Source: Thamnidium elegans (lineage: Eukaryota; Mucoromycota; Mucoromycetes; Mucorales; Mucoraceae). Taken from it: a stretch of DNA of 64,000 bases. The position numbers and the translations under genes were made by a program. Each line of letters starts with the position of its first letter. The stretch's first letter is position 1. Under the pieces are notes generated by a model. It was not told where the DNA came from, made no database searches, and saw only the letters and a list, made by a program, of their open reading frames with translations. The stretch is taken from assembly GCA_025201345.1 (NCBI GenBank), contig JAIXMG010000031.1, positions 310,001-374,000 on the forward strand. The letters are read 5' to 3'. Below, one piece after another: positions 21,707 to 28,952 of this stretch.

Positions 21707-23744
21707 ATGTCAGCCGCAGTAGCTAATGACGTTCCTGTAAAGGATAATGTAGTAAAAAAGTCGCAACTAAAGCAAAAAAAGAGAAATAAAAAGAAGACCA
21801 GTAAACAACGTCGTGATGAAGAAGCAAAACGTAAAGCGGTAAGTTTTTATTATAAAAAAAATTGTTGCTGTCGCGCATTACTTATTTTTTTTTAAATTAT
21901 GTAGGAAATAGAACAACAAATAAATAAAGAAAAGGACGTTTCACTTGATAATGTTGAAATTGAATATGTTGTTCAACCAGTTGATGTTTCAGCTTTAAAG
22001 AATATGGATGGCATGTCAAGTCTTGATGAGAATACACTTCAACAATTTTCTGATATCTTTAAACATTTCCAAACTGGTAAACCCGATGAAGACGAAGAGG
22101 TTAGTTCTTAATAAAGTGAACATTCAATGATTTTAGTCATCAACTAACTTATCATTATTAGGAATTCCCTGTTCATGATAATCAAGAACAAACCGAGGAT
22201 AATGATGGTGAATCTAATGATGAAGAAAAAGAGTCCGATCTACCTTTGTCAAAGAAAAAATTGAAAAAGATTCAACGCTTAACAGTAGCCGAATTAAAGC
22301 AACTGGTAAAGAAACCTGAAGCAGTTGAGGTATAGTATATATAAATCATGCATTTTTGCGAAAAAAAAATTGATTTGATTTTTTATAATTGATAAAAATT
22401 ATTATATAGTGGTGGGATGTTACAGCTACAGATCCTAGATTATTAGTGGCATTAAAATCTTATCGTAATACAGTTCCTGTTCCTGCGCATTGGAGTCAAA
22501 AGCGTAAATACCTTCAAGGAAAGCGTGGTATTGAAAAGCCACCATGGGAATTACCTGGTAAGTTGACAAAATTTTGATTTGTAAAACATTGCAGGGACTC
22601 AATTACCTTTGTATGTGTAGACTTTATTAAGGATACAGGTATTATGGAAATGCGTGACGCAGTCAAGGAAAAGGAAAGCGCAGCTGGTTTAAAAAGTAAA
22701 ATGAAGGAGAAGGTAGCACCCAAGATGGGTAAATTAGATATCGATTACCAAAAATTACATGATGCATTTTTCAGATTCCAAACCAAATCGAAATACACAA
22801 TGCATGGTGAACTTTACTATGAAGGTAAAGAATTTGAAACCAAATTAAAGGAACAAAAGCCTGGCCAATTATCAGAAGAATTGAAGGAGGCATTAAATAT
22901 GCCACCATTAGCACCACCTCCTTGGCTAATTAATATGCAACGTTATGGTCCTCCACCTAGTTATCCTAGTCTCAAGATTGCCGGTTTAAATGCACCGATA
23001 CCCGAAGGTGCTCAATGGGGTTATCATCCTGGTGGATGGGGTAGACCTCCTGTTGATGAATTCAATAGACCTCTTTACGGTGACGTATTTGGCGTAACTC
23101 AACCTAATGCAGTACCACCTGAGATTGTTGAACCAGTAGATAAAAAGATTTGGGGTGAACTTGAATCAGAAGATGAATACGAAGAAGAAGAGGAGGAGGA
23201 GGAGGAAGAGGAAAGTGAAGCAGAAGAAGAGGAAGAATCAACTGAAGCAGATAATACTGACCTTGCTGATGGTTTAGTGACACCTTCTGGTATGTCATCT
23301 ATTGCTTCTGGTTTAGAAACACCAGATCATATTGAACTTCGTAAAGATCGTGTTAGAGATGAAGATGAAGGACCAAAACAATTATATCAAGTATTACCTG
23401 AAGTACAAAAGAATATATCTGGATTTATGGGTTCTCAACATGGATATGACCTTAGTACTGTAGATAAACCAATCGCTAATGTTCCACCTGGAAGATCCCA
23501 ATCTTCAAAACGTAAAGTGGGTGAAAATGTGGATGTGGCTATTGATCCTAGTGAATTGGAAAGCGGTTTAGATGAAGCTACTTTACGTGCTAAATATGAT
23601 GCTCAAATGAAGGCTAAGAAGCCTGTAGGTGTTGGAGAAGAAGATTTATCGGATATGTATGCTGAACATGCTAGTAGACAAGCAAAGAAAGCGAAGACAC
23701 AAGATAGTCGAAAGGAAGGAAAGAAGAAGGAATTCAAATTTTAG
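21707..23744 (+). CDS. CUS1: Splicing factor 3B subunit 2 (SF3B2/SAP145/Cus1)
   Basis: Exons 21707-21838, 21905-22099, 22162-22329, 22410-22557, 22621-23744 (588 aa; S. pombe Sap145 is about 600). Lysine-rich N-terminus, then the conserved block WWDVTATDPRLL...VPVPAHWSQKRKYL (DUF382), then the proline-rich PSP region PPPSYPSLKIAGLNAPIPEG followed by WGYHPGGWGRPP. Near residue 330-350 there is an almost pure Glu/Asp stretch. This is the U2 snRNP SF3b subunit that contacts SF3B4 and the branch-site region. Divergent 5' neighbour is the carrier gene, about 210 bp between starts. Confidence 0.96.
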
Positions 23745-23779: not shown

Positions 23780-24571
23780 TTATAAAACTACGAAACTCGA
23801 TATAATAAAGAATCCGAATACAAGTAAACAAATGATGACCTAAAAAAAAAAAAATACTTAATATATATTATAATCGTCTTTTGTATATATATATATACCA
23901 TGGCTTTTAAAGTTAATGGCTCTACAAACCCATTCATTAATTCGCCAAATACTTGAGTCGCTATCTTGGATTTTCCTATAAACTGAGGTTGCAAGTTTCT
24001 ACATGTAAATTTTAAACTGTTAAGGATAAAAAAATATTATGCGTGAGTAATTTTTTAGTGAGGTTAATTTTTTTTTAAAAAAAAAGGATATCTATCCCAT
24101 TCATCACAAAATGTCTGCCAATAAGTTCCTTTTAAGTCAGGTCCACAATCGTTACTTATGTAGTTATAGTGGCATGTTCGTGTTTTATCTTCAAACTCTG
24201 TGCAGAACGAAATATGAGTACCTTTTTTTTTTTTTTTTTTTTTTTTTTACCTCTAAGCTCAGAATCATAACGATCTTGAATCTCTTGCGTACAGGATCGA
24301 ATCAGTTGATAAAAGATGAAGAGTATTATTAAAATACCAGTTGCGTGTAGGACTAACTTGATGTAACTGTAATAAGGAAACTGTAAAAAAGGGGGTCAAG
24401 TTTATTTTTGGTCATGGTGAGGAGGGTATTTTCTTACGTTGATAATATAATGGGAGCGTCAGGAGAAGCTAAAAACGAAGTATAGTTTCTGAACGAAGTT
24501 TTTATTTGCATTTCTTTTTCATTCGTATTTTGTATCTTTCTCTTCTTTACTGGACGGTCGTTACAAGACAT
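23780..24571 (-). CDS. BRL1: Nuclear-envelope protein Brl1/Brr6 homologue
   Basis: Exons (minus strand): 24438-24571, 24251-24366, 24092-24197, 23899-24004, 23780-23839 (173 aa). A first membrane segment (about residues 49-66, VLHATGILIILFIFYQ) and a second at the extreme C-terminus (155-173) flank a lumenal domain with four cysteines, C92, C101, C114 and C120, in the Brl1/Brr6 pattern (C...YISNDCGP...FCDEWDRC). Then comes GKSKIATQVFGELMNGFVEP, the conserved block before TM2. Brl1/Brr6 act in nuclear pore assembly and membrane homeostasis. Intron 3 is an AT-AC, U12-type intron that splits the codon of R119, just before C120. Intron 1's acceptor had to be the second AG (TTATTACAG), since the first gives a stop. 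Confidence 0.9.
24005..24091 (-). other. U12-type AT-AC intron in BRL1
   Basis: Read on the minus strand the intron begins ATATCCTTT at 24091, has TCCTTAAC at 24026-24019, and ends TTTAC at 24005. The U12 consensus is /ATATCCTTT at the 5' site and TTCCTTAAC at the branch. Branch A to intron end is 15 nt, within the usual U12 window. No GT donor exists near the exon end, and using AG acceptors nearby puts a TAG in frame; only AT-AC joins DEWDR to C120. Confidence 0.85.
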
Positions 24572-26088: not shown

Positions 26089-28952
26089 TTAGTTTGAAGA
26101 AGAGAATTGAAAAGGTCTTGGTTTTTTAGTTGGTGATTCTTCGTCTAAATCAATTTGCATTGGTTTTAAACCTCTCTTGTTGCTTGATTTATTTAAAAGT
26201 GAGAGATCATCGTCTAAAGCAGAATGACTTGAAGTATAAATACTAGGAAGCTTAGCAAAAGAGTCTGCTAAACTAGAAGGCGTAGGCAACTCATCATTTA
26301 TAAATTTTGTTTCCTTGACATGCGTCATTTTTTCTGCCAAGTTGTTTTGTCTGTGAAATAATGCGATACGAATTGCTTTATCTACTGATTCAGGTGTATG
26401 AAGTATACCACATAAATCTAATGATTTTGCTATCTTTTCTGCTTTACAAGCTAAATTAATCAACTTTAATAATGCAACATCCATACCCATATAAGCTTCA
26501 CTAAAGGCTTCTTCAAAATCTTCTAATGTATTGGTTGATTCAGCTTCATCGTGTTCGTGTCTATTACATGTCTCTATACGTAATTGTTCTTCTTCTAATT
26601 TTCCTACTTCTGATAACATATCTAAAAGAGGTAATTGTAAAGGAATATCTCTAATGGGTGGACGAGGGAAAAACGGATAAGGATTATTTCCGCGAAGGAT
26701 AACACACATAAGTTTATCACGTAATACACCAACAGGCCAATATTTTTCAGTCTTGTTTTGTTGACTAGCATATAATTTACCATCAAATACAGGAACCCAA
26801 CGTCCTTGATAAGGTCTACGTTGATCTTGTAAAACCCTCAAAATACTAAAAGAATCAAAAGTAGCAATTTGATTTGTTTCTGTAAATCCAACCCAATGAA
26901 GGTCTGCATCTGTTGTTAATTGTACATCATCTTTTTGTAATACTTCATTTGAGTCTGTATTAAGTAACATATATTTCAAGTTTTGTTGATTATTATATCC
27001 AGGTCCATTTGAGTATACAAAGCATGCTAAATCAGTTTTGGCTGTAACAGAAACAATATTCTCCAAAGAAAATATATATCTTTGGATACCAGTAGTTGTA
27101 AAAATACGAACATATCCTAATGAAGTAGTAGCGATAACAGATATACGATTGATAGCTACACTAATAATATCTTCTCCGGGAAGCATATGATGTGTCCAAT
27201 CTTTATCTTGTCCCCAATTATTTGGTCTATAATATAAAATGGAATTTATTGGTTTTGTTTCTTGTTCTTCTTCATCATCTTCATCATCACTATCATCTTG
27301 CTTCTTTTTTTTATCTTTTACAGCTTCTTTACTTTCTACTGCATAAACTGTACCAGTTTGACTAATAGCTGCCATTGTAAAATTAAATACATCAGTAAAA
27401 TAAAAATTACGGTATTCTGATTGATCATGAAATTCTACATTAATAACCGAATGTTCCTGTTCATATATAGTTGAAATAACACCAATTAAATTATATGCCA
27501 TATATCTACGTTCACCTTGAGCTGGTTCAAAAGAAGAATTCTCTTCAGGTTTATGATAAGGGGTTTCTCCAGGTTGAAATGTAGTAGGTGGTTGAAACGC
27601 CATTTCTATTTTACGTTGAATTTGATTCACACCTTGAGCTGCTCTTGCGTTCAAGAATTGTTGGCTTTTATTGTTAGCAGCAGCAACAGTAGCAGCAGCA
27701 GCATCTGCTGATTCTACGTAACCAGCTCCATCATCATCAACAACAAAATCACCTTCGCCTTCTTCGTCCTCTAATCCAAATAACTCATTCATGTCATCAT
27801 CGTCCATTTCCATTTCGTTATCCACATCCACATCCATTTCAGTTTTACGTACCATGGCTGGGTGAGGATAATTACTATTATTATTTGGAATAACATCATC
27901 CCAAAATCGAAGTTGACCATATAAATCAGTGATAGCTAATTGATTCAAGGTAGGACTCCACGCTAATCCAGTAATGGAAGTACTATTGACTTCAGATCTC
28001 ACTTGTAATTTCGTCTTTGTATCCCATACAACTAATATATTGTCTCGACTTGTCGTAGCCAAATAATAACCATTGGGAGACCAAGCCATTGTAATAATCT
28101 CCTGTGTATGTCCTCCTTCTAAAGTATATAATGAAGTCCACATACGACTGGAAAATACACGGATGTCATGGTTAAGGCCCGGGAAAGAAAAGCATGTATT
28201 ATCAGGACTCCAAGCTACCGTGGTTTGAAGAAGAGAATCCATACTTGATTTATAAGTTATGCCTGATAATTTCTTAAGCACTTTAGGTAAAGGTTCTGTG
28301 GGTGCAACACTCCAGATCAAAATATCGCCTTGTGTATCAGAAGATATTATATAATCACCTTTTCTATCATAACAAACTGATTTCACTGTTGATGTATGAC
28401 CCTTTAACTGAACTATCTTTGAACTGTCCGCAACTAAAACTACACGAATATCATTATCACTACAGATATATGCGAATTAATACAAATTGTGATTTTTTTT
28501 TTTTTTTTTTTTTTGGACACTTACTCAGTGGCAATAGCAAGCTTGGTACCGTTAGGATTATACGCTATATCTCTTACAGGAACAGTACTTCTAACAAGAA
28601 TTTTTTCAAAACTATTGTCGTTACTGTACAATAAGACCAAACCGTCTGTACCACCACTAGCAAAACCAGTGCTAGAAGTAGCAATACAAGTGACATCCTC
28701 GGTATGATTAACTACATTGGCAGCGACATAGCCTTGTGTTTCTGGATCTGTGTCATAAATTTTTAAGCCGGTGGCGTCTGAACCTCCAACAATCAACTGC
28801 CTACGAATATAAAAAAAGGGATGTTTTGTAAATGTATTTACTTTTAACAGAAAAAAAATAGGTATAGGCACTTACTTTCCGTCATACTTGTAACAAACAA
28901 GAGTTTTACCATCGGAAAAACTTAGTATAGTTTTTAAATCATCGAAGGGCAT
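26089..28952 (-). CDS. CTF4: Replisome adaptor Ctf4/Mcl1/AND-1 (WD40 + Mcl1_mid)
   Basis: Exons (minus strand): 28876-28952, 28525-28800, 26089-28459 (907 aa; yeast Ctf4 927). The N-terminal ~330 residues are WD40 repeats (for example GGSDATGLKIYDTD, ATTSRDNILVVWD). Then come an acidic linker (MEMDDDDMNELFG) and the SepB/Mcl1 middle beta-propeller, recognisable by FEPAQGERRYMAYNLIGVI, FHDQSEYRNFYFTD, WTHHMLPGEDI and the helical C-terminus. No HMG box follows, unlike the vertebrate protein. Ctf4 trimers tether polymerase alpha-primase to CMG helicase. The gene starts close to the trailing KIN17 gene; intron 2 has a 22-nt homopolymer. Confidence 0.93.

What the first reader, a model, noticed from the sequence alone, without database searches (positions are those of the whole stretch)
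24005..24091. U12-type AT-AC intron in a fungal Brl1/Brr6 gene
Seen: the intron starts ATATCCTTT, carries TCCTTAAC 15 nt before its end and ends in AC. Known: these are the minor-spliceosome consensus sites, and minor introns are rare in fungi, lost from ascomycete models and reported for some early-diverging lineages. Inference: this locus is spliced by a U11/U12 spliceosome. The join restores the frame and the fourth conserved cysteine of the Brl1/Brr6 domain; no GT-AG alternative does. A minor intron in a nuclear-envelope biogenesis gene could couple it to minor-splicing efficiency.
Basis: partly seen in the sequence, partly recalled or inferred. Interest (0 to 1): 0.85.

Follow-up and report, generated by a model that had tools for sequence, protein, structure and literature searches.

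The report
Minor-spliceosome intron in a fungal gene
A mould gene for a nuclear-membrane protein holds a rare kind of intron that ordinary gene finders tend to miss; the genome carries the RNA parts of the rare splicing machine that should remove it, and several related moulds seem to share the intron, so it is a well-supported new case of something already known.

Summary
Minus strand 24091-24005 is an 87-nt intron (ATATCCTTT...TCCTTAAC, 14 nt, ending AC) in a five-exon Brl1/Brr6-domain gene. Of 16,587 frame-keeping border pairs for this join, it gives the top-scoring protein (262.6 bits; best GT-AG 191.6; unspliced 156.4). A public Thamnidium elegans protein is identical over 173 aa. The genome has one match each for U11, U12, U4atac and U6atac (U12 and U4atac under Rfam's cut-off), with fitting pairing segments. 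The AT-type motif pair occurs 21 times against 1 for a reversed control; five other AT-AC joins restore Pfam domains. New here: relatives' protein models break at this intron. Mucor velutinosus and one unnamed contig end soon after ...DRYPF, Parasitella parasitica reads through it, and Mucor flavus skips the exon. One relative (P0009) appears to lack it. So it is probably a minor intron shared within Mucorales, where the class is already reported. No RNA reads and no relatives' DNA were available; the proposed regulatory coupling is untested.

The parts
24438..24571 (-). exon 1 of the Brl1/Brr6-domain gene (ATG at 24571)
   Evidence: the spliced translation equals P0001
24251..24366 (-). exon 2; flanked by GT-AG introns 24437-24367 and 24250-24198
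24092..24197 (-). exon 3: carries domain cysteines 1-3 (C92, C101, C114)
24005..24091 (-). AT-AC U12-type intron, 87 nt, phase 2
24083..24091 (-). 5' splice site ATATCCTTT; can pair with the U11 5' end and with U6atac
24019..24026 (-). branch-site motif TCCTTAAC; can pair with U12 GUAAGGAUAA; 14 nt before the intron end
23899..24004 (-). exon 4: starts with the base completing the split AGA codon, then the fourth cysteine (C120)
23840..23898 (-). last intron, GT-AG (major type)
23780..23839 (-). exon 5, ends with the stop codon TAA

Best explanation
24091-24005 (minus strand) is a genuine minor-class (U12-dependent) AT-AC intron. U11 would recognise AUAUCCUUU, U12 would pair with the branch site UCCUUAAC, U4atac would deliver U6atac to the 5' site, and the AC 14 nt after the branch motif would be the 3' site. 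Splicing joins AG|A and so restores the fourth cysteine of the lumenal disulfide domain of a Brl1/Brr6-family membrane protein. Shown: the motifs, the frame and domain restoration, snRNA gene matches with fitting pairing segments, and peptides of relatives that fit the same intron. Inferred: that the minor spliceosome performs the reaction in the cell, and that the intron was present in a common ancestor of at least Thamnidium, Mucor velutinosus and Parasitella and was lost, or never gained, in some relatives. It is most likely an inherited constitutive intron with no special regulatory task.
For: Donor exact and branch motif TCCTTAAC exact. Top of 16,587 border pairs, tied only with two slid versions that give the same protein. 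Public protein identical over 173 aa, longest contig 445,984 bp, the length of C25. Pfam Brr6_like_C_C 98.3 bits on the spliced protein. U11 67.9, U6atac 59.5, U12 47.6, U4atac 46.8 bits; major U4 is a different gene, 99.3 bits. Paralogues C56 and C23 encode NWEKC and EWANC without interruption, the spacing that the AC join gives. Relatives' models break at the same codon with the donor peptide YPF (P0008, P0010, P0012), and P0010 also shows ILN...TC as expected from the branch site and AC|ATGT.
Against: No RNA reads. U12 and U4atac lie under Rfam's gathering scores (53 bits each), and a re-scan with clan competition labelled the U4atac locus U4. The U11 search, run at E up to 10, also rang in 3 of 14 control genomes, none over the cut-off. 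No minor-specific protein was found among the two families sought. Conservation in relatives rests on peptides, not on their DNA. P0009, apparently genomic, is continuous here, so the intron is not universal. The first base of the 9-nt branch consensus is A here instead of T.
Confidence: 0.95

Rival explanations
1. The same donor is used with the AG at 24017 (AT-AG), adding four codons (D-SLKFT-C instead of D-R-C), as main or alternative product.
For: Keeps the frame; 250.2 bits, best of the AT-AG class.
Against: 12.4 bits lower than AT-AC. The AG follows TCCTTAAC directly, while 10-23 nt follow the motif in the 12 introns measured. It breaks the W-x-x-C spacing kept in two paralogues and in the six listed relatives that are continuous through the site (P0002, P0003, P0004, P0005, P0007, P0009). 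The public protein uses AC.
Confidence: 0.03
2. An AT-AC intron removed by the major (U2) spliceosome.
For: U2-type AT-AC introns are known in other organisms (recalled); a major U4 gene is present too.
Against: Full 9-nt minor donor and 8-nt minor branch motif with pairing to U11 and U12; genome-wide enrichment of just this motif pair.
Confidence: 0.03
3. Not spliced: a broken gene or assembly error, with the motifs by chance.
For: Without splicing the frame stops soon after DRYPFFLKKN.
Against: The motif pair is expected about once per genome by the control; splicing restores the domain; relatives have the gene and several show the intron.
Confidence: 0.01
4. One reading: retention of this intron sets the level of the protein, coupling nuclear-envelope biogenesis to minor-splicing capacity.
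For: Retention in T. elegans would end the protein before the fourth cysteine. Human AT-AN minor introns have relatively high basal retention, and CENATAC loss affects genes enriched for nucleocytoplasmic transport (PMC8280824, abstract).
Against: Two other family members are uninterrupted at this site; the P. parasitica model reads through the intron in frame (81 nt), so retention there need not truncate; a relative seems to lack the intron (P0009); no expression data.
Confidence: 0.07

Closest known systems
U12-type AT-AC introns of Mucorales (Rhizopus oryzae, Phycomyces blakesleeanus; PMC2846911, passages with part of Table 2 seen)
   Same: Same order of fungi; EST-based cases (by one method Phycomyces 9 AT-AC and 8 GT-AG, Rhizopus 1 and 2; by the other 8 and 12, 1 and 3).
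   Different: Different species; the passages seen name no genes, so overlap in genes is unknown.
Minor introns of Rhizophagus irregularis (PMC10639083, passages and section 30 seen)
   Same: Fungal minor introns with all four minor snRNAs reported.
   Different: 205 predicted there from annotated introns; here 13 curated candidates from a strict, incomplete motif search.
Minor spliceosomal RNAs of Lichtheimia corymbifera (PMC4133162, two passages seen)
   Same: The paper reports an atrophied third stem and a shortened last stem of U12, the latter at least for all basal fungi; the U12 match here is 106 nt.
   Different: U4atac was not found in Lichtheimia; here a candidate exists and pairs with U6atac.
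Brl1/Brr6 family (Pfam PF10104)
   Same: Four-cysteine domain, 98.3 bits against a cut-off of 25.
   Different: The search for Brl1, Brr6 and intron gave two papers, neither about this by title and abstract start (listing only).

Membership tests
U12-type (minor) intron | 5' splice site RTATCCTTT | tested here: met
   ATATCCTTT, exact
U12-type (minor) intron | branch site TTCCTTRAY close to the 3' end | tested here: met
   ATCCTTAAC, 8 of 9 (A for the first T), 14 nt before the end; consensus recalled
U12-type (minor) intron | AT-AC or GT-AG ends that restore the reading frame and product | tested here: met
   top of 16,587 border pairs; two ties (TA-CA, AT-AT) give the same protein by sliding
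U12-type (minor) intron | genome has U11, U12, U4atac and U6atac | tested here: met
   one match each; U11 and U6atac over the gathering score, U12 and U4atac under it but with fitting pairing segments
U12-type (minor) intron | minor-specific proteins (65K, 48K, 35K, ZRSR2, CENATAC) | tested here: inconclusive
   PF14968 not found here or in any of 14 control genomes; PF05253 not found here, found in 1 of 14 controls, an archaeon; the others not searched
U12-type (minor) intron | splicing in RNA, dependent on U12/U6atac | not testable with these tools
   no RNA reads held; the public protein has the join, but its basis is not stated
Brl1/Brr6 family (PF10104) | domain with four conserved cysteines between two membrane spans | tested here: met
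   98.3 bits; C92, C101, C114, C120; membrane spans read by eye only
Brl1/Brr6 family (PF10104) | PAL motif at the tip of the helix bundle (PMC13043894, passages) | tested here: inconclusive
   window gene has CGPDL near that place; paralogues have LPAI and VPAI; read by eye, not aligned to yeast

The most novel reading that the evidence does not exclude
The surviving minor introns of this mould are mainly of the AT-AC subtype: 11 of 13 curated candidates found with strict motifs, whereas GT-AG is the majority among minor introns in most species (PMC10639083). This lineage may then keep a minor spliceosome largely for AT-AC introns, with the Brl1/Brr6-domain intron as a member whose retention tunes nuclear-envelope biogenesis.
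Probability: 0.08. Interest if true: 0.6.

Novelty: new member of a known kind. Interest (0 to 1): 0.36.

Why it matters
It adds a well-supported AT-AC minor intron, probably shared by several Mucoraceae, in a nuclear-envelope gene. Protein models of this gene in related moulds are damaged at just this site: truncation, read-through and exon skip. That fits annotation that expects GT-AG introns. It also gives a mould with four recognisable minor snRNA genes and about a dozen candidate targets, a small system in which minor-intron loss and AT-AC specificity could be tested.

Tried and rejected
Rfam gathering scan of the window: no match.

Motif census. Of the 21 AT-type matches, ten have coherent coding on both sides of an AT-AC join: L009, L011, L013, L015, L017, L018, L023 (the window gene), L024, L025, L029. 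Six of these are backed by Pfam; the other four rest on my reading of the frames. Three are copies of one repeat by their sequence (L012, L020, L021). Two are ambiguous (L014, L016). Six do not look like introns (L010, L019, L022, L026, L027, L028). The output was cut: L019-L022 were seen only as matched strings, and L026 only in part. One search has 65 rows (control 17), the 21 included; of the other 44 I viewed eight in context: L081 fits an AT-AC intron by eye, L082 is unclear, L051 was rejected because a GT donor inside the match reads better with its protein, and L036, L040, L041, L046, L048 do not look like introns. Of the 5 GT matches (control 4), L030 was confirmed by Pfam, L032 is unclear, and L031, L033, L034 do not look like introns. 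One search has 34 rows (control 10), those 5 included; of the other 29 I viewed two: L058, confirmed by Pfam, and L074, unclear. The loose counts exceed their controls for GT as well as for AT, and many rows look like coding sequence, so the reversed pattern is an imperfect control. The 13 curated introns are the ten, L081, L030 and L058. L081 was not found because of my typing slip.

An AT-AC excess over Phycomyces (9 against 8 by one method) is not established: the numbers are small and strict motifs favour near-consensus introns.

CENATAC (PF14968) and U11-48K (PF05253): no match, no conclusion. I ran no structure prediction. Relatives' DNA could not be read: I know of no collection here that holds fungal genomes other than the window's own. 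Literature searches (listings, with passages read of some) showed no paper on a minor intron in a Brl1/Brr6 gene or on minor introns in Thamnidium; they cover only the held open library and those terms.

Full report
What was checked. The window is bases 310001-374000 of contig C25 in a 34.1-Mb genome. The minus strand at 24091-24005 reads ATATCCTTTTTTTTTAAAA...TTATCCTTAACAGTTTAAAATTTAC, 87 nt. Around it lies a five-exon gene: exons 24571-24438, 24366-24251, 24197-24092, 24004-23899 and 23839-23780; the three other introns are GT-AG. The spliced protein has 173 residues. It matches Pfam Brr6_like_C_C at 98.3 bits and is identical over its whole length to a public protein of Thamnidium elegans (Mucorales, Mucoraceae). 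That protein's longest contig, 445,984 bp, has the length of C25. I take the organism to be T. elegans on that basis. Whether the public model rests on RNA is not stated.

Border test. I spliced exons 3 and 4 with every border pair (introns of 30-199 nt) that gives more than 120 aa, 16,587 pairs, keeping the three GT-AG introns as read, and scored each protein with a profile of five relatives (P0002, P0003, P0004, P0005, P0007). AT-AC 24091-24005 is top with 262.6 bits; TA-CA and AT-AT one and two bases further score the same, because sliding gives the same protein. The best AT-AG is 250.2 (24091-24017), GC-AG 219.7, GT-AC 209.3, GT-AG 191.6; unspliced 156.4. The relatives were found with the spliced protein as query, so this is not fully independent. 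But the two other family members in the same genome (C56, C23), read from uninterrupted DNA, have NWEKC and EWANC, the same spacing as EWDRC of the AC join.

Machinery. Searches of the own genome gave one match each: U11 (67.9 bits, gathering 39), U6atac (59.5, 33), U12 (47.6, 53) and U4atac (46.8, 53). For U12, U6atac and U4atac none of 14 control genomes rang; for U11, searched at E up to 10, three rang, none over the cut-off. The U12 match is short (106 nt); the Lichtheimia paper reports reduced U12 stems in basal fungi (PMC4133162, two passages seen). In a re-scan with clan competition the U4atac locus was labelled U4 (41.6 bits). A separate major U4 gene exists with 99.3 bits, and 19 of the first 20 nt of the candidate pair with this genome's U6atac, so I read it as U4atac. 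The 5' site can pair with the U11 5' end and with U6atac, and the branch site with GUAAGGAUAA of U12. Two protein families sought were not found (CCDC84/CENATAC and U11-48K zinc finger); without a eukaryotic positive control these say little.

Genome-wide frequency. ATATCCTT followed after 11-71 nt by TCCTTRAC occurs 21 times; the pattern read backwards, once. The GT version occurs 5 times against 4. With a looser branch motif the counts are 65 against 17 and 34 against 10; many of those rows look like coding sequence, so these excesses are not all introns. Of the 21, ten join coding frames across an AT-AC intron. Besides the window gene, five of these joins fall inside Pfam matches: DCP2 box A, importin-beta N-terminal, prefoldin, RNB and LSM12. 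Two GT-AG cases were confirmed in the same way: WAC and cornichon. In the 12 introns measured, 10-23 nt follow the branch motif (L013 has 13 if its AC is used). This excess is the strongest sign, short of RNA, that the motif pair is functional here. The AT-AC share (11 of 13 curated) looks high, but the search was strict and incomplete.

Relatives. The profile search gave 12 proteins at E up to 0.001; all 12 were read and aligned. Three break at the intron with the donor's own peptide: P0008 (Mucor velutinosus) ...CDEWDRYPFYNNLI-end; P0012 (source 'lgn', which I take to be Logan; 97% identical over 21% of the query) ...CDEWDRYPFIFKKK-end; P0010 (Parasitella parasitica) ...CDEWDRYPFFLKKKK...VCVILNSSNTCRQFQ... 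In T. elegans AG|ATATCCTTT in the same phase also reads R-Y-P-F. All three peptides can be encoded with ATATCCTTT at that phase, and P0010 also with TATCCTTAAC and AC|ATGT at the right places, giving an intron of 81 nt. P0006 (Mucor flavus, 96 aa) joins ELR to GKSK and so drops the four-cysteine exon; in T. elegans the same protein would arise by joining the intron 2 donor to an AG inside exon 4 (read by eye). P0002, P0003, P0004, P0005, P0007 and P0009 are continuous through DRC. P0009, from a 2,482-bp contig (source 'jgi'), seems to read into introns at both ends yet is continuous at DRCR, so the intron is probably absent there. P0002 and P0004 come from contigs of 1,219 and 930 bp without any introns and could be cDNA. 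P0011 does not reach the site. I did not see the relatives' DNA, so donor and branch site in them are inferred from peptides.

What it is. A minor-class AT-AC intron, probably shared by several Mucoraceae, in one of three Brl1/Brr6-domain genes found in this genome. Minor introns in Mucorales are known: Rhizopus and Phycomyces (PMC2846911, passages), with counts repeated in PMC10639083 (passages). The kind is not new; this instance and its traces in relatives were not found in print within the held library and the terms searched. Mutating all four cysteines is lethal for yeast Brr6 and inactivates Brl1 (PMC8449258 and PMC13043894, passages), so correct removal of this intron should matter for the protein.

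What is not shown. Splicing in RNA, dependence on U12 and U6atac, and any regulatory use. The coupling idea has weak support and some evidence against it: two uninterrupted family members, apparent absence in a relative, and an in-frame intron in Parasitella.

Noticed in passing
P0006, P0008, P0010, P0012: Protein models of this gene in related moulds are damaged exactly at the AT-AC intron: exon skip, truncations and a read-through. A search for proteins that end soon after the peptide of a minor donor could find hidden minor introns elsewhere.
   Followed up: partly
window 22644-23744 (+): The convergent neighbour matches PSP and DUF382, the domains of SF3B2/Cus1 (name recalled), an SF3b subunit shared by both spliceosomes (recalled). 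Probably coincidence.
   Followed up: partly
L012, L020, L021, L047 (around 1501): A repeated element holds ATATCCTTTATAACATTTG(G/A)ATAACCC...CCTTAAC; in L012 it follows the stop of a frame with a TnpB/Fanzor-like zinc ribbon (CSTCDTRWNRDHMASMNI, recalled likeness). Not an intron.
   Followed up: no
L025 and L081: Two genes with similar exon ends (DWVPPERLYAI, EWVPPDRPAMI) each have an AT-AC minor-type intron at what looks like the same place: perhaps a minor intron kept through gene duplication.
   Followed up: no
L001 (C56) and L002 (C23): Two further Brl1/Brr6-domain genes; by eye they have introns near the flanking GT-AG sites but none at the AT-AC site, and carry LPAI/VPAI where the window gene has GPDL.
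   Followed up: partly
L005 1606-1501 (-): U12 snRNA match of 106 nt with a much reduced 3' part and GGAUAA where the Rfam consensus has GGAAAA; the window intron's branch site (TTATCC) matches that change, though most other curated branch sites do not.
   Followed up: partly
window 26089-28386 (-): Ctf4/Mcl1-type gene (Mcl1_mid, Ctf4_C).
   Followed up: no
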